64,000 nucleotides of DNA from Chromohalobacter sp. 11-W (GTDB lineage: Bacteria; Pseudomonadota; Gammaproteobacteria; Pseudomonadales; Halomonadaceae). The DNA is taken from positions 1 through 64,000 of the forward strand of contig NZ_JARANZ010000004.1 of the NCBI RefSeq assembly GCF_029889905.1, read 5' to 3'. Positions 1 through 9,468 of the stretch are shown piece by piece (position 1 is the stretch's first letter; each line of letters starts with the position of its first letter). Below the pieces are notes generated by a model. That model ran no database searches and had not been told where the DNA came from. It saw nothing but the letters and a program-made list of their open reading frames with translations. Both the position numbers and the translations under genes were made by a program.

Positions 1-60
1 TCCACTCAGGTATTGCTGCACCACTTGCCACTTAAACTGGTCGCTGTACTGGTTCTTCAT
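1..60 (-). CDS. IS3-family transposase OrfA, N-terminal 20 residues only
   Basis: The minus-strand frame begins with ATG at 60-58 and reads MKNQYSDQFKWQVVQQYLSG, the start of a helix-turn-helix OrfA protein of the IS3 family, which binds the element ends. The reading frame leaves the window at position 1, so length and intactness are unknown. It sits directly inside the terminal repeat, as expected for this family. Confidence 0.75.
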   Translation of the reverse strand, partial: MKNQYSDQFKWQVVQQYLSG

Positions 61-111
61 AGAAACACCCCGAAGGTTGGATTGGGTGTCCAACTTTCGG
101 GGTGCAGTTCA
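1..111 (-). mobile_element. Left end of an IS3-family insertion sequence (truncated by window)
   Basis: Read on the minus strand, the element begins at 111 with TGAACTGCACCCCGAAAGTT, the type of TG-starting terminal inverted repeat used by IS3/IS150-group elements. An internal hairpin follows at 71-100, where the CCGAA...TTCGG arms face each other, and then a transposase start codon at 60. Only this terminus lies in the window, so the direct repeat and the second end cannot be seen. It borders the AT-rich island that carries the Kiwa genes and is a plausible agent of that island's assembly. Confidence 0.8.
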
Positions 112-233
112 GATGCCGGGCGTGGAGATCCGGTGCCGGGACAGGATTGGGCGGGTGTCGTGAGCGAGAAAGCAATAGTATGAGGAGTGTGCTTTGTTTA
201 GATTTTTTATTTCTCCTCCCTTGAGGCAGGGAA

Positions 234-824
234 ATGCAGCTTAAAATTCTTTCGGCTTTTTTGATTTTTTGCGGATCATACTTGCCGCTAAGTCTTATAC
301 TTTTGATTAAGGATTTTGAAAGCTCTGCGCTGAAGGATAATATTTGCTGGGGTTATTTTAAAGATAGTGATGCATGCTATATCCCGTTCTCCAATCCCTT
401 TTTAAGCTTTGGAGTGGTGGTTCTTTGCTTTCTTTGTCTGCTATTGTCAGTTTTGGTTCTTGGGCAAATACGGTGCAAGCACGAAGTTAAGATCACAGAG
501 GTTAAGCATGTGCCAATGGATTTGATGAATTATGTTTTGCCATACCTGGTTGCCTTTATATCGATTGAGTATTCACAAGGAAAAGAGTTTTTAGGTTATT
601 TGTTGTTTTTGTTGTGGCTTTTTTGGATAACTTATAAGTCGGGGCGAGCCGTATTAAACCCTGTTCTTACTGTTTTTAATTGGAAGCTTTATGAGGTCTC
701 TTACGTTGTAGGGGGGAGCGGTGCTAAGCGAACGGGGGTTATGCTTTCTAATGCAGAAGTGATTCCTGCGGAATATATTAGTCATAATAAAATACAGGAT
801 GTGATGATAGTGCGGAGGGAATAA
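234..824 (+). CDS. kwaA: KwaA-like membrane protein of a Kiwa anti-phage system
   Basis: A 196-residue protein with four hydrophobic segments, at roughly residues 5-26, 58-80, 95-112 and 117-134. They are followed by a soluble C-terminal tail with an LNPVLTVFNWKLYEVSY stretch typical of this small membrane family. In Kiwa, KwaA is the inner-membrane sensor that works with DNA-binding KwaB against phage. The start is supported by a purine-rich site (GGCAGGGA) just upstream. The stop codon shares one base with the kwaB start (TAATG), indicating translational coupling. Base composition is clearly AT-richer than the rest of the window, a sign of transfer. The assignment rests on topology, length and the diagnostic partner gene rather than on a catalytic motif. 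Confidence 0.8.
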   Translation: MQLKILSAFLIFCGSYLPLSLILLIKDFESSALKDNICWGYFKDSDACYIPFSNPFLSFGVVVLCFLCLLLSVLVLGQIRCKHEVKITEVKHVPMDLMNYVLPYLVAFISIEYSQGKEFLGYLLFLLWLFWITYKSGRAVLNPVLTVFNWKLYEVSYVVGGSGAKRTGVMLSNAEVIPAEYISHNKIQDVMIVRRE

Positions 825-1750
825 TGAGTGATGATTTAAGCTCTCTAAAAAGTTTTAATTTTGATGAGGCAAATGTTCACCTTTGGGTGTTCAAGACTGG
901 TGTGGATGTGAATAACAAACAGCTCCCGAGATACACTGGACGCTGGGTAGAAACAGGAGGTTATCTTGATGATGGTCTGTCAGATGTTGCTAGCTCTGTA
1001 ATTCAGGATGTTACAGAAACAACACCTTATAGTATTCTGGCGCAAAACAATGAAGGCAGTGCTCTTACTATACCTTTTGAAGAAACACATGTGGGTTTGA
1101 TTATTGATGCTTGTGGTGAGCAATCGCAAAAAAAGAAAATAGCAGATGTTAAGCATCTTAGGAATGGTGTCTTTTACGTGGCTAAGTTTGAAATAAATGG
1201 TGAGGCTGTATACGGAATAACAAGAACTCCTCCGGAGTGGAAAAATGTTAAGCGTCGAAATTTGATTTCTGCAACATTTAGAGACCAAGCGCTTGAGGTT
1301 GAAGAAACCGATACGTTCTCACTCCATAAAACTTTTGATGTTTTTGTTTGTGGCTCTACAGTTTTTGCTCTTCATAAAAATAACTGTGAATCTATCCTCA
1401 GTTATAAGCAGGCGCATCTGGAGAATTTCGACCAACTGAATCAAGATGCAGACTTTGTTGATCTTTTTAGTGACGTTGAGCCAATTAAAAGGTACGTGGG
1501 AAGAGACAAGATACAGTTAAGGAGAGCTGCTGCTATTCAGCAGAAAGGGCATTATAAGAACGCCGATTTCATCAATAGTTTGATAGCAAACAAAGATCGT
1601 TTGAAGCTAAATATTACTATTGATGGTAATAACAAGATAGTTGTTACAGATGATGCTTGTAGAGATATATTTCAAGCGCTTCTCGATCATCGTTTGATAT
1701 CACATTATCAAGGCAATGTTTATGACGTGCAGCACACTGTAGATGTGTGA
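824..1750 (+). CDS. kwaB: KwaB-like (DUF4868) effector of a Kiwa anti-phage system
   Basis: A 308-residue soluble protein that I recognise as the DUF4868 type, the defining domain of KwaB. It has no signal peptide or membrane segment. The N-terminal half is beta-rich, and the C-terminal part holds a conserved-looking segment (IQLRRAAAIQQKGHYKNADF) and an alpha-helical end. KwaB is known to bind DNA and to act with membrane-bound KwaA to block phage replication. Length matches the usual 300-320 residues, and the frame is open throughout, so the gene looks functional. It is coupled to the preceding kwaA by a one-base overlap, and both genes share the same AT-rich composition. Immediately downstream lies a broken SRAP gene. 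Confidence 0.82.
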   Translation: MSDDLSSLKSFNFDEANVHLWVFKTGVDVNNKQLPRYTGRWVETGGYLDDGLSDVASSVIQDVTETTPYSILAQNNEGSALTIPFEETHVGLIIDACGEQSQKKKIADVKHLRNGVFYVAKFEINGEAVYGITRTPPEWKNVKRRNLISATFRDQALEVEETDTFSLHKTFDVFVCGSTVFALHKNNCESILSYKQAHLENFDQLNQDADFVDLFSDVEPIKRYVGRDKIQLRRAAAIQQKGHYKNADFINSLIANKDRLKLNITIDGNNKIVVTDDACRDIFQALLDHRLISHYQGNVYDVQHTVDV

Positions 1751-1753
1751 TGA

Positions 1754-1957
1754 GTGATATGTGCCCGCTTTGCTCTCTATAGCCCATATCCCAAGCTCGT
1801 CCAGCCCCTTCGTCTACCGCTGGAATCGGGTGAGGTGAAGCCACGCTATAATATGGCGCCGGGCACCTGGATCACCACGGCGCGTCATCCTGGCGATGAC
1901 GCGCCGTTTGTAATGGACGAGGTGTGGTGGATCTACCGGCCGCACTGGGCTAAAGAG
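1754..1957 (+). pseudogene. SRAP-domain (YedK/HMCES-like) gene remnant, 5' part only
   Basis: The frame reads ICARFALYSPYPKLVQ, then KPRYNMAPGTWITT, then a DEVWW...YRPHWAKE segment. These match the first ~68 residues of SRAP proteins, which crosslink to abasic sites in single-stranded DNA through Cys2. The initiator methionine position is ATA and the following Cys-Gly is Cys-Ala, so the N-terminal catalytic cysteine could not be exposed normally. Similarity stops after AKE, leaving about two thirds of the domain missing. The frame stays open for 46 more codons of unrelated sequence. It is therefore a decayed fragment, possibly the gene into which the island inserted or a piece carried with it. 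Confidence 0.75.
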
Positions 1958-2277
1958 CAAGCGTTCGATCGATCTGGTTCGATCCTTATTAGACGGGTCG
2001 CGAGACAATCCATCACGTTACGTTGTTCGTCTTCTGCTTGCCGAGCTGCTCATCCATTGGCTGGTGAACTCGCGGGTTCATCGGTCCGCGAGTGACGGTG
2101 TCTGCTGGACCGTTCCTGTATAAAACGCCTTTTCTTATGTAGCCGTTTGACTATCGTGGGCATTCCCTTCCTGTGGTATAACTTATAAGATTGGCCTTAA
2201 GAATCATTCGGTATGGGGTGATTCTATGTAAAAAATTATTAGCAAAGTGATCAATATCTACGACAGGGGCTGTTGGC
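1958..2277 (+). other. Intergenic stretch between SRAP remnant and GNAT-type gene
   Basis: About 320 bases with no recognisable gene. Composition shifts from GC-rich (to ~2100) to AT-rich, which marks a junction between pieces of different origin. The AT-rich part contains TATAAC at 2178-2183, a reasonable -10 element for the following gene, but no convincing -35 at the right distance. Confidence 0.5.
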
Positions 2278-3333
2278 ATGAGTATGTATTTTCAACTATT
2301 TTCAGACATAAACTTCTCGGATCCATTTTTTGAATCATTGAAGCATGATTATTCGGAGTTTTCTGACTGGCTTTCTCGTAAGGCCGCACAAGGGCATTCA
2401 GCTTATGTTTTCTACAATGCGCCAGGAGTGATTGATGGCTTTCTTTACCTAAAGAGAGAAGATGAAGCGGTAGATGATGTCTATCCTTCTCTACCGGCCT
2501 CGCCTCGTCTTAAGGTCGGTACTTTTAAAATAAATCCGCATGGCACGAGATTGGGCGAGAGGTTTATTAAGAAAATATTCGATCATGCGATTGAAATGTC
2601 GTTGCCCGAGATCTATGTGACTGCATTTGCTAAGCATGAGGCCTTGATTAACCTTTTGATGCGATATGGTTTCGGTGTCTGTGGTGAAAAAAATACTCAT
2701 AACGGCACTGAGCTTGTCCTTATCAAGCGCATGGCGTTGACGAGCCCTGATCCCTTGATTAATTATCCCATGATCAACCTCAGGCCCGGGCGTTGCTTTT
2801 TGTTACCTATCCATCCTGAGTATCATACGCGTTTGCTGCCTGATTCTATCCTGAACAATGAAAATATGAGCATGATTCAGGATGTCTCGCACACAAACAG
2901 TATTCACAAGGTTTACCTGACGGCGATGCATGGTGCGCGGAATCTACAGCGTGGAGATTTGCTGATGGTCTATCGCACAGGCGACGGCGTTGCACCTGCC
3001 AGGTTTCGCGCTGTCGTCACTTCCATTGGCGTTGTTGAGGAAATTAAGAACATTCAGGAGTTCAGTAGCTACGAAGGTTTTTACCGTTACTGTGCTTCTT
3101 ATAGCGTATTTTCTGACGATGAATTGGCGCGTTTTTATAGGTCAGGAAAGTATCCATATATCATCAAATTCAGCTATAATGTAGCCATGAGGAAGCGTAT
3201 CACTCGCGGAGATCTCCTTGACAATTTTGGGTTTCCTGATGGTGTGCGTTGGGGGGTTGATTCGGTCAATACTGACGCTATGAGGCACATTATGATGAGA
3301 GGCGGGGTCGATGAAAGTATTATTGTCAATTAA
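2278..3333 (+). CDS. GNAT-like acetyltransferase fused to a PUA/EVE/ASCH-like domain
   Basis: A 351-residue protein with two apparent domains. Residues ~1-155 resemble a GNAT N-acetyltransferase: a beta strand leads into KINPHGTRLGERFIKK, the place of the acetyl-CoA pyrophosphate-binding loop, and is followed by strand, helix and a GF turn. Residues ~165-345 look like a PUA-fold domain of the ASCH/EVE type: a GRCFLLPIHPEYHTRLLP start, then KVYLTAMHGARNLQRGDLLM and beta strands. PUA-fold domains usually bind modified bases or RNA. The C-terminus overlaps the next gene by 23 bases, so the two are co-translated. AT-rich codon use and position beside Kiwa suggest an acquired module, perhaps defence or toxin-antitoxin. 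The function is not established, and the domain calls are by eye. Confidence 0.65.
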   Translation: MSMYFQLFSDINFSDPFFESLKHDYSEFSDWLSRKAAQGHSAYVFYNAPGVIDGFLYLKREDEAVDDVYPSLPASPRLKVGTFKINPHGTRLGERFIKKIFDHAIEMSLPEIYVTAFAKHEALINLLMRYGFGVCGEKNTHNGTELVLIKRMALTSPDPLINYPMINLRPGRCFLLPIHPEYHTRLLPDSILNNENMSMIQDVSHTNSIHKVYLTAMHGARNLQRGDLLMVYRTGDGVAPARFRAVVTSIGVVEEIKNIQEFSSYEGFYRYCASYSVFSDDELARFYRSGKYPYIIKFSYNVAMRKRITRGDLLDNFGFPDGVRWGVDSVNTDAMRHIMMRGGVDESIIVN

Positions 3334-3682
3334 GCCTGAATTTGCTGAATCCATCCTTGATGGAAAAAAGCATTTTGAGTTTCGAAAGAGAATTTTTAAG
3401 AGAGATAACATCGAAAAGGTAATCATCTATGCAACGATGCCTGTCGGCAAGGTCATAGGTGAGTTCGATATCGATGGAGTCCTTGCCATGGAGCCTAAAG
3501 ATCTTTGGCAAGAAACCAAGGATAATGCTGGGATTAGCTTGAACTTCTTTGAGTCCTATTTTTCTGGTAAGCAGCAAGGGTTCGCGATAAAGGTGAAAAA
3601 CCCTAAGCGCTATGAAAATCCATGCAACCTCAATGACATTTTGGACAACGCCGTAGCTCCCCAATCCTACCGCTATCTCTGA
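3311..3682 (+). CDS. ASCH-domain protein (PUA-like fold)
   Basis: A 123-residue single-domain protein beginning LLSIKPEFAESILDGKKHFE, the signature of ASCH proteins, with the conserved K-P, I-L-D-G-K and E-F-R-K positions. IIYATMPVGKVIGEF and later strands complete the barrel. ASCH domains are predicted nucleic-acid or nucleotide binders, often annotated as transcriptional regulators. The start ATG lies inside the 3' end of the GNAT/PUA-like gene (23-base overlap, different frame), so expression is coupled. A hairpin with a T run follows 18 bases after the stop. I recognise this gene pair as recurring in bacterial islands, but its biochemical role is not known to me. Confidence 0.75.
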   Translation: MKVLLSIKPEFAESILDGKKHFEFRKRIFKRDNIEKVIIYATMPVGKVIGEFDIDGVLAMEPKDLWQETKDNAGISLNFFESYFSGKQQGFAIKVKNPKRYENPCNLNDILDNAVAPQSYRYL

Positions 3683-3699
3683 GCTTTATTTTCTCCTTT

Positions 3700-3724
3700 A
3701 AGCCCTGGCCTCCCCGGGGCTTTT
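3700..3724 (+). terminator. Rho-independent terminator after the ASCH gene
   Basis: AAGCCC at 3700-3705 pairs with GGGCTT at 3717-3722 around a GC-rich loop and runs into TTTT. It lies 18 bases beyond the stop at 3682. It also overlaps the far 3' end of the decayed umuC on the other strand. Confidence 0.6.
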
Positions 3725-4170
3725 ATCTAATAGCGCCTTTACTTTAGGCAACTCATCCCACCTCGTCGTCCGCCTAGGTGTACGGTGCGCTCAGCGCAGG
3801 CGCCAGGCGGCGTTCTGACGCGGCGCGCCCAGGCGCACAGTGCCTTTGCCCATCTTCCCGTTGAGCGCGTCCAAGGCGGCCATCAGTTGGTGGTCGCGTT
3901 CGGGCAGGGCTTCCCGCTCGGGGGGGGGGCGAGTAGCGAGAGCTGCTCGCGCTTGGCGTCCAACAGGTCGGGCAGCATCACGCCGCCCTTCATGAATCGG
4001 TAACCACGGCGATAGATCGTCTCGAGCCCTTGGCGGGCGGCGGCGAGGATCGGTCGGCTGTCGTCGGTGGGCTCGGGCAGCTCGAAGACGATGCTGGGCG
4101 AGTACTGGGTAAGTCGAGGGGTGCGGTTGGCCTTGAGCAAGGAGATCACCGATCGCAACACTATTCGCAC
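3700..4170 (-). pseudogene. umuC: umuC (DNA polymerase V subunit) 3' remnant with frameshift and nonsense codon
   Basis: Read leftward from about 4170, the frame gives YSPSIVFELPEPTDDSR, GLETIYRRGYRFMKGGVML and PDLLDAKREQLSLLAPP. This is the C-terminal little-finger/DUF4113 part of the Y-family polymerase UmuC. At a run of ten G (3920-3929) the match jumps to another frame and continues with ERDHQLMAALDALNGKMGKG, TVRLGAPRQNAAWRLR, then a TGA at about 3795. After the stop the same frame still reads TTRWDELPKVKA, so the stop is a nonsense mutation inside the old gene. The polymerase core upstream of 4170 is absent. The gene cannot be functional. Confidence 0.8.
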
Positions 4171-4281
4171 GCTTCGTGCGCCACATTCCCACCGAGGCCG
4201 TTACGAATTCACCTTCTCGACTTCGTGAAGAAGCAGGGGAGGGCTGGTGAATCCAGCGTAAGCAATTTTCTACAGCTCTGG

Positions 4282-4308
4282 TTGACTGGGCTGAATATCC
4301 GTTATCAT
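4282..4308 (+). promoter_or_regulatory. Possible sigma-70 promoter for the lipoprotein gene
   Basis: TTGACT (4282-4287) and TATCAT (4303-4308) are separated by 15 bases, a little short of the optimum. They lie 40 bases upstream of the ATG at 4348 in an AT-rich patch. Composition and position support it, but the short spacer lowers confidence. Confidence 0.35.
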
Positions 4309-4347
4309 CTGTTGTGCATTATTAATATACGAATAATAGGGGAACGC

Positions 4348-5001
4348 ATGAAAAATCTACTCGCGGTAGTCAGCATGATGATGCTGGTCGGGTGTACATC
4401 AGTCGCCTACAACGGCGGTGGTAATGTCGTAGACCGGGTTAGTTATCCGAAAGTTGGCGAGGTGGTGACTGCGCAGGTGGGAGACCACTTAGTCGAGAAG
4501 GGATCACTAGTTAAAGAGGGGGTGCTCAAAGTCAATCAGCGCGTAGATGGTTTTCTATATGACATCCCCGCCCAAGCATACCGGCAAGTCGGCGCTGACT
4601 CCGAGAATGATTTTTATGGAAGTGTTGGCGTGACTCGCAATCCACTGGCAGACCCTGTGCAGGCGTTGGCTGTGGCGAAGGAAGACGATGCTCAGGTTTG
4701 TGTCATCTCAACATTCGGAGCATCGAATTGCTACAATGCCAACTACGATAAGACTTCACGGCTTTCCGTTTCGGATGATGGGTTTAAGCAGACTCTTATT
4801 TATAATGGGAGGGTTGGTGATCGTATCAATATTGGCTACCGGGAGTTTAGCAATAACTCAGCGCGGCCAGCTTTCAATAATGAAGTCGAGTATGATTTGA
4901 GTAGTTCGCATCGCATTGGTTACAAGGGGGCTAGTATAGAGGTTCTTGAAGCCGGCAATAATTCCATTACTTATCGACTTATTAGTAATTTTCCAGATTG
5001 A
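4348..5001 (+). CDS. Orphan lipoprotein of unknown function
   Basis: The chosen start at 4348 follows an AGGGGAAC ribosome site and gives MKNLLAVVSMMMLVGCTSVA, a lipoprotein signal peptide whose lipobox LVGC places the modified cysteine at residue 16. The 217-residue protein should be anchored in a membrane facing the periplasm. The open frame extends further upstream, but that part is GC-rich umuC remnant DNA and lacks a signal peptide. The mature part is beta-strand rich with no family I recognise. It stands alone between the umuC remnant and a strong hairpin, with AT-leaning codon use, and is probably island cargo. No function can be assigned. Confidence 0.75.
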   Translation: MKNLLAVVSMMMLVGCTSVAYNGGGNVVDRVSYPKVGEVVTAQVGDHLVEKGSLVKEGVLKVNQRVDGFLYDIPAQAYRQVGADSENDFYGSVGVTRNPLADPVQALAVAKEDDAQVCVISTFGASNCYNANYDKTSRLSVSDDGFKQTLIYNGRVGDRINIGYREFSNNSARPAFNNEVEYDLSSSHRIGYKGASIEVLEAGNNSITYRLISNFPD

Positions 5002-5051
5002 CTGTCATGGATTTTAGTTTCTGTGCAGTAGAGCAGGGAGATATATGACAT

Positions 5052-5091
5052 GGATTATGCTGATCTCCTGAGCAGGAGGTCAGCATAATCC
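5052..5091. repeat. 18-bp near-perfect inverted repeat (hairpin)
   Basis: The arm at 5052-5069 and the arm at 5074-5091 are complementary over 18 positions with a single T/G wobble, around the loop GAGC. There is no T run on either side, so it is not a standard intrinsic terminator. It lies 50 bases after the lipoprotein stop and 69 bases beyond the end of the convergent nuclease-like gene, so it may block read-through in both directions or be a recombination relic. Confidence 0.8.
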
Positions 5092-5160
5092 GCGAGACGA
5101 TCGGCCCGCGCATGATAATGGGGCTTCACGGTCCCCAGATGATTCAGGGCCATAGGCCTG

Positions 5161-6237
5161 TTATTCGAGGTATTCGCTCACAGTCGTTTTCAGTCGATCT
5201 TTGTGCTTAAAGAGGTCACTAACGGAGTCTATCTCGATGCGGCTTTCTTGTTTGTCGGTGAAAAAGCCTACCCGTTTGACTGATTTCGCGTTGAAGTGGA
5301 AGCGGCAAATGGGCTTGCGGTTGTTGTCGTCGAGGAGCACTGCGCAGTAGGACTTCGCATCGCGCATGGCTATACGGCTGACATCGACCTGTTCTGCGAG
5401 CAGTGATCGTACGATGTTATAGGCGTCGATTTCTTCTTGGGTAGTGATGATTCCATCATCATCAGGCTCGGGCTCTTGCGACGAACTTTCGGGAGTCGAG
5501 GTAGGGTGGGGCGCATCGATATCGTTGCTGGCCAGAGCGCCACGTAGTCGCTGGGCGACTTGCTCTTTGATATAGAGCTTGCCTGCTTCCTTGATGATCG
5601 GCGTGAATTCTTCGACCACTTGCCGTGTCTGGCGACCCTCGTAGATCTTGCCCACTACGAACTTGACGAATTCTTCCGGTGTGTCTCGGAAGACCTCACC
5701 AATGGCCTGTTTGGCAAGGTTGGTGTACTTGAGCCGGTTGGCCGTACTGAGAATGGCATCAACATCAAAATTGGGCTTGGTAAATTTCTGAAGCTCGTCG
5801 ATATCCTGTTCGTTAAAGTCTTCTAGGTCGAAAGTGAAAAAGGGGCGCGTGTCCAGCTTGTTCTCGGAGTCCAAGTCAGAATAGAAGCGGTATTCAAAAC
5901 CGTTCGTCAAGATGGCGAATTTGGCATCCGTGCAAGAAAAGTAACGATAGAGCTGGTTGTACTGGACGTTGGCGAGATTGGTGCCCAAGGGTTTGCATTC
6001 CATAAGGATCGAAATGTTGCCATCTGCACGAATGGCGTAATCGACCTTTTCACCCTTCTTGGTGCCTACATCCGCCGTGAATTCTGGCACTACCTCTCGG
6101 GTATCAAAGGGATCGTATCCAAGCGAGTTGATGAAGGGGAGTACTAACGCCGTCTTGGTCGCTTCCTCGTTCTTGATGTGTTCGACCTGTTCTTCACCAC
6201 GACGTGCGATGCCGTAAAGCTTCTCGCTCAAGTCCAT
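5161..6237 (-). CDS. Orphan HsdR-N-type (PD-(D/E)xK) nuclease-like protein
   Basis: A 358-residue protein whose N-terminal half matches the restriction-enzyme R-subunit N-terminal domain family (HSDR_N). The PD-(D/E)xK active site is visible as Glu25, Asp66 in KVDYAI and Glu80-x-Lys82 in LMECKP, followed by a Q-L-Y-R-Y-F motif at about 95. There is no helicase/translocase part and no methylase or specificity gene nearby, so it is a stand-alone nuclease-like protein, not type I restriction. Residues ~240-275 form an acidic Ser/Pro-rich linker to a C-terminal beta domain. Such orphan proteins are widespread and usually annotated as restriction endonuclease-like. A defence role is plausible from its island position but unproven. 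Confidence 0.75.
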   Translation of the reverse strand: MDLSEKLYGIARRGEEQVEHIKNEEATKTALVLPFINSLGYDPFDTREVVPEFTADVGTKKGEKVDYAIRADGNISILMECKPLGTNLANVQYNQLYRYFSCTDAKFAILTNGFEYRFYSDLDSENKLDTRPFFTFDLEDFNEQDIDELQKFTKPNFDVDAILSTANRLKYTNLAKQAIGEVFRDTPEEFVKFVVGKIYEGRQTRQVVEEFTPIIKEAGKLYIKEQVAQRLRGALASNDIDAPHPTSTPESSSQEPEPDDDGIITTQEEIDAYNIVRSLLAEQVDVSRIAMRDAKSYCAVLLDDNNRKPICRFHFNAKSVKRVGFFTDKQESRIEIDSVSDLFKHKDRLKTTVSEYLE

Positions 6238-6990: not shown

Positions 6991-7009
6991 GAGAATATTT
7001 CATATTCTC
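6991..7009. promoter_or_regulatory. Perfect inverted repeat, possible operator
   Basis: GAGAATAT (6991-6998) and ATATTCTC (7002-7009) form a perfect 8-bp inverted repeat with spacer TTC. It is in the divergent region between the cytochrome b561 gene (start 6971) and the ABC binding-protein gene (start 7168), close to the former's likely promoter. The size suits a dimeric repressor, but the protein is unknown. Confidence 0.45.
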
Positions 7010-7167
7010 ATCTTTGGATTCAAATTTCCTCATCGATGTTCTCTCTGCCCGACGCTTTGTCTATTACCAGCGATCCGCTTATGCTGAACCACGGGTTGAT
7101 ATCAAACATGAAGGGTCATACCCGCCGATCACTCAACAATTAAGGTCTGCACAAGGAGTCTTCTGCA

Positions 7168-8382
7168 ATGACCGTCAAGAAACCGCTTATCGGTGCTATT
7201 TCCGCGGTGGCCTTGGCCACCAGTCTTTCCGCCCTGGCCGAACCGCTCAAGATCGGTGTGCTGGTGCCGCTGACCGGCGACCTGCAAAGCTATGGTGAGC
7301 CCGCGCTCAAGGCCGCGCAGCTGGCTGCCAAGGAGATCAATTCCGCCGGCGGCGTACTCGGCGAAGACGTCGCGCTCAGCAGTGGCGACACTCAGACCTC
7401 ACCGCAGCCCGGCGTCGCCGCGGCTCAGAAGCTGGTCAACATCGAAGGCGTCAACGCGATCTTCGGCGCGCTCTCCAGTGGGGTGACCATCCCCGTGGCG
7501 CAGAGCGTCTCCAAGCCCGAGCAGGTGCCGCAGATCAGCAGTGCCTCGACCTCGCCGGTAATTACCTCGCTGGATGACGACGACTTCCTGTTCCGGACCG
7601 TACCCTCGGACGCTTTCCAGGGCGTGGCGCTCTCCGAGGTGACTCAGGAGAAGGGCTACAAGAACGTTAGCATCATCTATATCAATAACGACTACGGCAA
7701 GGGGCTTGCCGACGCCTTCACCAGCGCCTTCGAAAAAGCGGGCGGCACGGTCTCTGCGACGGTGGCTTACGAGCAGGGCCAGGCGGCCTATCGCGGTGAG
7801 CTGCAACAGGCCGCCAATGACGCCGCCGAGGCGCTGGTGTTGATCGGTTATCCGGAGAATGGCCAGACCATCCTGCGTCAGTCGCTGGAAGGCGGATTCT
7901 TCAAGAACTTCGTGTTCACCGATGGCATGAAGGCGCCCGAGCTGGTCGACAACTTGGGTGCGCAATACCTCGAGGGGTCGGTGGGCACGGTTCCCCAGGC
8001 TCGCGCCGACTCGCCGGGGGCGCAGCACTTCAGTAGCGCCTACGAGAGCGAATACGGCTCGCTGCCGCCCAAGCCCTATCTGGATACCGCCTACGACGCC
8101 TTCTACCTGCTGTCGCTGGCGGCTCAGGCGGCCGGCTCCACCGACAGTGTGGCGATTCGCGATCAACTGCGCGCGGTTGCCAACCCGCCGGGCGAGCAGG
8201 TCGGTCCGGGCGAGTTCGAGAAAGCCGTCAAGCTGCTCGAGGAAGGTCAGGAGATCGATTACGAGGGCGCTTCCGGCTCGGTCAACTTCGACGACAACGG
8301 CGACGTGCCGGGGACGTTCGGCGAGTGGACCTTCAAGGATGGCGAAGTGGTCACCAACAGGATCTTCGAACCCACGATGTAA
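7168..8382 (+). CDS. ABC transporter periplasmic binding protein, branched-chain amino acid type
   Basis: A 404-residue protein with a Sec signal (residues 1-24, cleavage after ALA) followed by KIGVLVPLTGDLQSYGEP, the opening of LivJ/LivK-type (HAAT family) periplasmic binding proteins. The two-lobed type I fold spans the rest, with SSGVTIPVA and a GLADAFTSAFEKAGG segment at the lobe crossover. The start follows an AAGGAG site 12 bases upstream. It faces the livGFHM permease operon tail-to-tail across a shared terminator and is very likely its binding partner. The ligand could be leucine/isoleucine/valine, another amino acid, or an amide; the sequence does not decide. Confidence 0.88.
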   Translation: MTVKKPLIGAISAVALATSLSALAEPLKIGVLVPLTGDLQSYGEPALKAAQLAAKEINSAGGVLGEDVALSSGDTQTSPQPGVAAAQKLVNIEGVNAIFGALSSGVTIPVAQSVSKPEQVPQISSASTSPVITSLDDDDFLFRTVPSDAFQGVALSEVTQEKGYKNVSIIYINNDYGKGLADAFTSAFEKAGGTVSATVAYEQGQAAYRGELQQAANDAAEALVLIGYPENGQTILRQSLEGGFFKNFVFTDGMKAPELVDNLGAQYLEGSVGTVPQARADSPGAQHFSSAYESEYGSLPPKPYLDTAYDAFYLLSLAAQAAGSTDSVAIRDQLRAVANPPGEQVGPGEFEKAVKLLEEGQEIDYEGASGSVNFDDNGDVPGTFGEWTFKDGEVVTNRIFEPTM

Positions 8383-8424
8383 GCGCGAACAGTCGATCGA
8401 CCGATCGCCTGTCAACACGCCCAG

Positions 8425-8468
8425 AACTAAAAAGCGCCCCCGGCCAAAGTCGGGGGCGCTTTTTAGTT
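8425..8468. terminator. Bidirectional intrinsic terminator
   Basis: AACTAAAAAGCGCCCCCG (8425-8442) and its exact complement (8451-8468) form an 18-bp stem around an eight-base loop. An A run before and a T run after make it efficient in both directions. It ends the binding-protein gene from the left and the livGFHM operon from the right. Confidence 0.93.
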
Positions 8469-8520
8469 AGCAACGAGTAGCTGCTTTAGCGACCGTCCGC
8501 GCCGCGGGCGGTCTTTACGC

Positions 8521-9468
8521 TCAACGCTTTTTGGCGATCAGCTTGGGTGGCTTCTCGGGCAGTATCCCCTCGGGGCGCAGCACCAGGATCACCTGCAGCA
8601 GTACGCCGATCAGCAGCACGCGCAGGGCTGCCGCTTGGGTGGCGTGCTCGGAGGGTAGCAACCCGGTGAGCAGGTCGGTACCCGACCATACGCCCCACAC
8701 CACGATGGCACCGAGGATCGCGCCTCGATTGTTACCGCTGCCGCCGGCAATCAGCATCACCCAGACCAGGAAGGTGCCGTAGAGTGGCATGAACGCCTCG
8801 GGACTCAAAAAGCCGAAGAAGTGGGCATAGAGTCCGCCGCCCAGGCCCATGATCGCCGAACCCAGCACGAACGCCTGCAGGCGGAAGCCGGCTATGGATT
8901 TACCCGCCGCTGCGGTGGCCGGTTCGTTCTCGCGAATGGCGCGGAGCACACGGCCCCAGGGCGAGGCGTAGGCGCGTTCGACCAGGAAATACACCCCGGC
9001 GACGAACAGCGCGACGATCACCAAATAGGCGAAGGAGCTATCCAGTGCAATGCCGGCCAGCGGCCGGTCGATGCCGGCGATGCCGCGCACGCCGTTGGTT
9101 AGCCAATCCTCGTTCTTGACGAACAGACGAACCATTTCGGCGATGCCGATCGAGGCGATGGCCAGGTAGTCGGTACGCAGCCGAGCGGTGATCAGGCCGA
9201 CGACCAAGCCGAGCACGGTCGAGGCGATGACGGCGCCGAGCAGGCCGATCAGGAACGGCATGCCGAAGCCGCCTAGGTAGGCGGGGCTCGAGGGCGTGGT
9301 GAGGATCGCGCTGGTGTAGGCGCCGACCGCGAAGAAGCCGGCGATACCGATGTTGAATTGGCCGGTGAACCCCCACTGCATGTTGAGGCCTAGCGCGAGC
9401 ACGGCGTAGACGCCGGCGAAGGTCAGAAACGAGACCAGGTACGAGGCGATGCCGGTGAGTTCCATCAC
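8521..9468 (-). CDS. livM: Branched-chain amino acid ABC transporter permease LivM
   Basis: A 315-residue inner-membrane permease with eight or more hydrophobic segments. It has the family signature regions NMQWGFTGQFNIGIAGFFAV near the N-terminus and LRAIRENEPAAA-like cytoplasmic loop residues (LRAIRENEPATAAAGKS) where the ATPase docks. It forms the channel with LivH and is powered by LivG/LivF. It is last in the operon; its start overlaps the livH stop by four bases. The basic tail EKPPKLIAKKR lies in the cytoplasm. Confidence 0.92.
   Translation of the reverse strand: MMELTGIASYLVSFLTFAGVYAVLALGLNMQWGFTGQFNIGIAGFFAVGAYTSAILTTPSSPAYLGGFGMPFLIGLLGAVIASTVLGLVVGLITARLRTDYLAIASIGIAEMVRLFVKNEDWLTNGVRGIAGIDRPLAGIALDSSFAYLVIVALFVAGVYFLVERAYASPWGRVLRAIRENEPATAAAGKSIAGFRLQAFVLGSAIMGLGGGLYAHFFGFLSPEAFMPLYGTFLVWVMLIAGGSGNNRGAILGAIVVWGVWSGTDLLTGLLPSEHATQAAALRVLLIGVLLQVILVLRPEGILPEKPPKLIAKKR

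What the first reader, a model, noticed from the sequence alone, without database searches (positions are those of the whole stretch)
234..1750. Complete two-gene Kiwa anti-phage module in an AT-rich island
Directly seen: a four-helix 196-residue membrane protein coupled by a one-base overlap to a 308-residue soluble DUF4868-type protein, both AT-rich against a GC-rich chromosome and next to an IS end. Known: KwaA (membrane sensor) plus KwaB (DNA-binding) make up Kiwa. Inferred: a functional defence unit in a halophile, where phages and ionic conditions differ from tested hosts.
Basis: partly seen in the sequence, partly recalled or inferred. Interest (0 to 1): 0.75.

Follow-up and report, generated by a model that had tools for sequence, protein, structure and literature searches.

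The report
Intact Kiwa anti-phage gene pair
Two neighbouring genes here form an intact but sequence-divergent copy of Kiwa, a known bacterial defence against viruses, sitting at a chromosomal spot where related bacteria carry other defence genes; it is a good annotation rather than a new system.

Summary
The finding holds. 234-824 and 824-1750 (stops included) are intact ORFs sharing one base, at 38-39% GC against 62% for the chromosome. The first matches a PADLOC KwaA profile (3.2e-68), the second a PADLOC KwaB profile (1.3e-106) and Pfam KwaB far above cut-off. Predicted folds of both match only solved Kiwa proteins at E<=1e-3. kwaA was found next upstream of kwaB in 54 of 55 related loci. 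The pair is still far from the solved Kiwa: KwaB alone finds no KwaB in the PDB, KwaA misses NCBI's equivalog cut-off.

What the calls add is the setting. An insertion sequence ends at base 111; its other end lies in contig C1, 305 bp after a tRNA-Ser(GGA). In congeners the stretch between that tRNA and the conserved chromosome is nearly empty (2 of 6) or filled with other cargo (4 of 6), including restriction-modification genes. Kiwa thus appears to sit in a defence hotspot, beside a second candidate pair (2278-3682). Anti-phage activity, salt dependence and the promoter could not be tested. New member of a known kind.

The parts
1..111 (-). End of an insertion sequence (IS3-type by recall, from the reverse-strand start MKNQYSDQFKW... 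and the terminus GGGGTGCAGTTCA); target repeat GAT at 112-114 (or AGAT, 4 bp, if the last A is counted to the flank)
   Evidence: Bases 1-120 repeated at the start of contig C7; C1 ends inside the opposite IS end, preceded by GAT; the congener G004 reads through without the IS. After the IS C7 has CAT, not GAT
234..824 (+). kwaA, membrane component of Kiwa, 196 aa
   Evidence: PADLOC PDLC00215 KwaA 3.2e-68; solved KwaA 9mrg 4.1e-9 by sequence; fold match 9mrx_A 1.4e-9; NCBIfam KwaA 45.5 bits, below its cut-off of 100; no Pfam family at E<=0.1
824..1750 (+). kwaB, cytoplasmic DNA-binding component of Kiwa (DUF4868), 308 aa
   Evidence: PADLOC PDLC00237 KwaB 1.3e-106; Pfam PF16162 100.5 bits; fold match 9mrx_D 5.3e-11 with a model of pLDDT 90.9
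1754..2095 (+). Truncated SRAP (SOS response-associated peptidase) remnant after kwaB; a related piece lies in the congener G004
   Evidence: PF02586 30.6 bits over profile positions 1-72 of 214; 77% DNA identity of 1757-1875 to L080 8492-8610; the G004 ORF itself gave no Pfam match
2278..3333 (+). PDC-M11A, first gene of a PADLOC candidate defence pair in the same island
   Evidence: PADLOC PDLC04419 2.8e-133
3311..3682 (+). PDC-M11B, ASCH-domain partner
   Evidence: PADLOC PDLC04425 1.5e-50; Pfam ASCH 26.3 bits against 21.2
4969..5148 (.). Right edge of the variable island; conserved chromosome begins here in four of six congeners
   Evidence: The long alignment with congeners starts at 4969 (G001), 5142 (G002) or 5148 (G003, G008); in G006 and G004 it starts at 6066 and 6446

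Best explanation
The pair is a complete Kiwa system of a divergent clade found mostly in Alphaproteobacteria, probably acquired by horizontal transfer into a tRNA-Ser(GGA) defence hotspot. By transfer from the published Kiwa: KwaA forms a tetramer in the inner membrane and senses phage infection there, KwaB dimers dock on it, and KwaB then binds the injected DNA and blocks replication and late transcription without cutting it. Shown here: identity of both genes, intactness, fold family, gene order, genomic setting. Inferred: transfer, complex formation, sensing, DNA binding, anti-phage activity.
For: Family profiles; KwaA sequence match to solved KwaA; KwaB profile match to solved KwaB 2.3e-6; for both predicted folds every PDB hit at E<=1e-3 is a Kiwa protein (7 of 7; 6 of 6); kwaA next upstream of kwaB in 41 of 41 loci of the genome scan and in 54 of 55 related loci overall (7 of those 54 helped to build the kwaA profile, the 41 did not); low GC against the host; hotspot by synteny. 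Mechanism from passages of PMC12904381.
Against: KwaA misses the NCBIfam equivalog cut-off, 45.5 against 100 bits, and no NCBIfam model matches KwaB at E<=0.1. KwaB as a single query finds no KwaB in the PDB; identity in the fold alignments is 12-14% with query TM 0.54-0.56 and rmsd 6.4-7.0, so details of the published mechanism may not carry over. An IS lies 122 bp upstream of kwaA, and no promoter-like site was found between 112 and 233, so expression is uncertain.
Confidence: 0.92

Rival explanations
1. A Kiwa locus silenced by the IS: the genes are intact, but the insertion separated them from their promoter and they are on the way to loss.
For: The IS ends 122 bp before the kwaA ATG and no sigma-70-like site was seen at 112-233. 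Some related loci look decayed: KwaB of G018 lies in two frames, that of L037 is in two pieces and that of L060 is short.
Against: Both ORFs are intact, and by eye a ribosome-binding stretch (GGAGGG before kwaB) is kept. The consensus scan finds 5 promoter-like sites where shuffles give 4.9, so its silence means little. The stretch 112-159 is shared with G004, which carries other cargo, so the native promoter may lie in 160-233.
Confidence: 0.15
2. A KwaA/KwaB-like pair with another job (for example defence against plasmids, or a stress response) that only shares folds with Kiwa.
For: Strong divergence from the solved Kiwa proteins; 9 of 72,556 plasmid records and 0 of 50,697 phage records carry a relative of this KwaB, which says little about function.
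Against: Two-gene order kept in relatives, fold match of both partners and a defence-hotspot location. A Kiwa from Streptococcus thermophilus also protects against phage (PMC11514479, passages), though its sequence was not compared.
Confidence: 0.06

Closest known systems
Solved Kiwa (from Escherichia coli by recall; KwaA 9mrg/9mrr/9mrx, KwaB 9mrx/9mtn/9nyu)
   Same: 196 and 308 aa against 195 and 315 aa; both predicted folds match
   Different: 12-14% identity for KwaB and 17-22% for KwaA in fold alignments; KwaB not recognised by single-sequence search
Kiwa loci of the same clade in genomes and plasmids (for example Rhizobium acidisoli NZ_CP034999, Methylorubrum extorquens NC_012811)
   Same: KwaB identity 34-44% in 41 genome loci and 31-42% in nine plasmid records; kwaA next upstream; KwaB named Kiwa-like in 3 of the 6 plasmid records read
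   Different: The upstream kwaA is called hypothetical protein in all five of those six records that carry annotation; none is known to me as tested (recall, no search made for each)
Kiwa of Streptococcus thermophilus 90730
   Same: KwaA plus KwaB in a defence island, protective when cloned (PMC11514479, passages)
   Different: Distant host; kwaB is listed before kwaA; sequence not compared here

Membership tests
Kiwa | KwaA gene recognised by family profiles | tested here: met
   PADLOC KwaA 3.2e-68; but NCBIfam equivalog 45.5 bits, under its cut-off of 100
Kiwa | KwaB/DUF4868 gene recognised by family profiles | tested here: met
   PADLOC KwaB 1.3e-106; Pfam PF16162 100.5 bits against 26.3
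Kiwa | kwaA and kwaB adjacent, same strand | tested here: met
   One-base overlap; same order in 54 of 55 related loci, in L003 no kwaA was detected
Kiwa | Folds of both proteins match the solved Kiwa proteins | tested here: met
   KwaA 7 of 7 and KwaB 6 of 6 PDB hits at E<=1e-3 are Kiwa; confidence of the KwaA model is modest
Kiwa | KwaA is a multi-helix membrane protein | tested here: inconclusive
   The fold model gives the helices, hydropathy only two strong segments
Kiwa | KwaA tetramer bound by four KwaB dimers; DNA binding by KwaB | not testable with these tools
   Only single-chain prediction was on hand
Kiwa | Protection against phage | not testable with these tools
   Needs a phage assay

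The most novel reading that the evidence does not exclude
The clade is a functionally distinct Kiwa subtype whose KwaB, about 13% identical to the solved one, senses or binds differently; and the tRNA-Ser(GGA) site is a genus-wide exchange slot in which Kiwa and other cassettes are swapped between shared flanking remnants (111-159 on the left, the SRAP remnant at 1757-1875 on the right, both also in G004).
Probability: 0.3. Interest if true: 0.45.

Novelty: new member of a known kind. Interest (0 to 1): 0.25.

Why it matters
It places an intact Kiwa in a bacterium that carries an ectoine synthase gene, and points to a divergent clade that is under-annotated: in the five annotated plasmid records read, the partner kwaA is listed as a hypothetical protein, and the window's KwaA misses NCBI's equivalog cut-off. 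The tRNA-Ser hotspot is a short place to look for further defence genes in this genus, and the clade would test how much of the published Kiwa mechanism is general.

Tried and rejected
Phage origin: no relative of this KwaB in 50,697 phage records; in viral contigs 17 stretches matched a pattern and none encoded a relative. Salt adaptation visible in charge: KwaB pI 5.47 against a median of 5.50 in 51 relatives, KwaA 8.16 against 8.45 in 53; not supported. A second copy in the genome: none found. Prior mention of Kiwa in Halomonas (the genus is a guess and was never established): a search for both words gave 14 papers; judged by titles and abstract starts none is about that, and none was opened. 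A search for KwaB or DUF4868 gave mostly unrelated papers. PDC-M11 gave no paper. A search on hotspots gave 4 papers, not opened. The primary Kiwa paper (Cell 2025) is not held; its content is taken from passages of the review PMC12904381. Of PMC11514479 passages were read. Of the other papers only search listings were seen.

Rows left out: of the loci held, L001, L002, L007, L008 and L012 (own genome or repeats of the same place) were not scanned, and L009 (the IS on C7) is not Kiwa, which leaves 55 related loci of 56 scanned. The KwaB tree holds 51 of these 55 plus the window; L003, L014, L037 and L060 are absent because they did not give a matched stretch over 270 residues. The fold alignment A4 used 38 of the 41 loci of the genome scan (L037, L046, L060 left out by choice), seven loci from whole-genome searches and the window. 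The gap lengths use the longest frames and are not annotated starts.

Full report
Observation. The window begins at the first base of contig C33. ORFs 234-824 and 824-1750 are complete, start with ATG and share base 824. Their GC is 0.387 and 0.383 against 0.623 for the sequence from 7168 on.

Identity. The first protein matches 11 PADLOC KwaA profiles at E<=0.1, best 3.2e-68 over nearly its whole length; the second matches four KwaB profiles, best 1.3e-106, and Pfam KwaB at 100.5 bits. By sequence KwaA finds the solved Kiwa KwaA at 4.1e-9. KwaB alone finds nothing relevant, but a six-sequence profile finds solved KwaB at 2.3e-6. Results against an easy label: NCBIfam's KwaA equivalog scores 45.5 bits, under its cut-off of 100, no NCBIfam model matches KwaB at E<=0.1, and Pfam has no match for KwaA.

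Folds. The KwaA model (8 sequences, mean pLDDT 65.0) has seven PDB hits at E<=0.001, all KwaA chains. The KwaB model (46 sequences, pLDDT 90.9, pTM 0.81) has six, all KwaB, with query TM 0.54-0.56, rmsd 6.4-7.0 and 12-14% identity. The next hits have E of 0.23 and 0.6. A second aligner was not on the machine, and no complex could be modelled.

Relatives. The Pfam KwaB family occurs in 6 of 97 genomes searched, own genome included, and the closer PADLOC profile in 5 of 369 genomes of the class, own included. A scan of genome contigs found 41 loci: 33 are filed under Alphaproteobacteria, 4 under Gammaproteobacteria, 1 under Actinomycetota, 1 under Candidatus Saccharimonadota, and 2 have no class on file; names of metagenome bins may be wrong. 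kwaA was found next upstream of kwaB in 41 of 41, and in 54 of 55 related loci over all searches, L003 being the exception. Nine plasmid records and no phage record carry a relative. In the KwaB tree the window pairs with G031, a genome of the same family (54% identity, support 100/100); next by path length are a Pseudomonas bin and three alphaproteobacterial rows. With the low GC this suggests horizontal transfer, which is inference.

Setting. Bases 1-120 recur at the start of contig C7. The IS ends at base 111 and is followed by GAT. Contig C1 of the same genome carries tRNA-Ser(GGA) at 607080-607167 and ends inside the opposite IS end, whose first base is 607473, 305 bases further on, preceded by GAT. 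The congener G004 has the uninterrupted sequence with a single GAT. C7, the other contig that begins with this IS end, continues with CAT. So C1 and C33 are most likely neighbours across one IS copy with a 3-bp target repeat (4-bp, AGAT, if one base is counted otherwise); no read spans the join.

Hotspot. Of 10 genomes of the genus, own included, 9 match window 7001-9000, two of them (G005, G007) only over about 40 bases; G009 has no match. In six congeners the region was fetched. The long alignment starts at window 4969-5148 in four of them; in G006 and G004 it starts at 6066 and 6446. In G003 and G008 the tRNA-Ser lies 55 and 66 bases from the conserved block: nearly empty sites. G001, G006 and G004 have about 3.1, 3.2 and 7.7 kb between; in G002 no tRNA lies in the 10 kb fetched on that side. 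Of ten cargo proteins of G002, G004 and G006 given to PADLOC six match at E<=0.01: a type II methyltransferase and restriction enzyme in G004, a PLD-helicase, Orf5 and JukA in G002, and a partial match to candidate PDC-S49 in G006; four do not match. Whole systems were not checked. G004 also has Vsr. The cargo of G001 was not tested. The window's island holds kwaAB and the candidate pair PDC-M11A/B.

Slot exchange. Window 111-159 and 1757-1875 match G004 on either side of different cargo, so kwaAB occupies the slot that in G004 holds other ORFs and a gene that looks like a transposase (by eye). Exchange by recombination in shared flanks is inference from one congener.

Mechanism. By the review passages read, KwaA tetramers carry four KwaB dimers, sense infection at the membrane, and KwaB binds phage DNA and stops replication and late transcription without cutting; how KwaA senses is unknown. 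PMC11514479 (passages) cites an earlier preprint for a trigger by inhibition of host RNA polymerase, a RecBCD-dependent effect, and activity of KwaB without KwaA. I transfer the membrane-sensor model to the window's pair; nothing here tests it. The Kiwa of Streptococcus thermophilus gave 5- and 4-log reduction against two lactococcal phages and about 1 log against streptococcal phages, so another Kiwa far from the usual host can work.

Verdict. A well-supported new member of Kiwa from a divergent clade, in what looks like a defence hotspot; interest modest.

Noticed in passing
window 2278-3682: Candidate defence pair PDC-M11A/B beside Kiwa. M11B has an ASCH domain; M11A looks like an acetyltransferase (GNAT) fold by eye, with only a non-significant PDB hint (E 0.26) and no Pfam GNAT match. 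From recall, some ASCH proteins remove acetyl groups from cytidine, so a modify/unmodify pair is conceivable. Relatives of the pair also lie just downstream of Kiwa in L047 (1 of 56 loci scanned, flanks of unequal length), in reverse gene order.
   Followed up: partly
L075-L080; window 1-5148: Apparent defence hotspot between tRNA-Ser(GGA) and the cytochrome b561 region in this genus: nearly empty in 2 of 6 congeners, other cargo in 4.
   Followed up: partly
window 5161-6237, minus strand: Protein with a type I restriction HSDR_N domain (PF04313 46.8 bits), whole in G002, G003 and G008, in two frames in G001 and mostly missing in G006.
   Followed up: no
window 1754-2095: Truncated SRAP gene; a related piece lies in G004.
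   Followed up: partly
window 3820-3920: 101-base stretch at 86% identity to the congener G001 just left of its conserved block; a further shared remnant inside the island.
   Followed up: no
L014 (G018): KwaB of another genome of the family lies in two overlapping frames, a likely decayed Kiwa.
   Followed up: no
L006 (G006): A congener carries a very different Kiwa (KwaB about 14% identical) at another chromosomal place.
   Followed up: no
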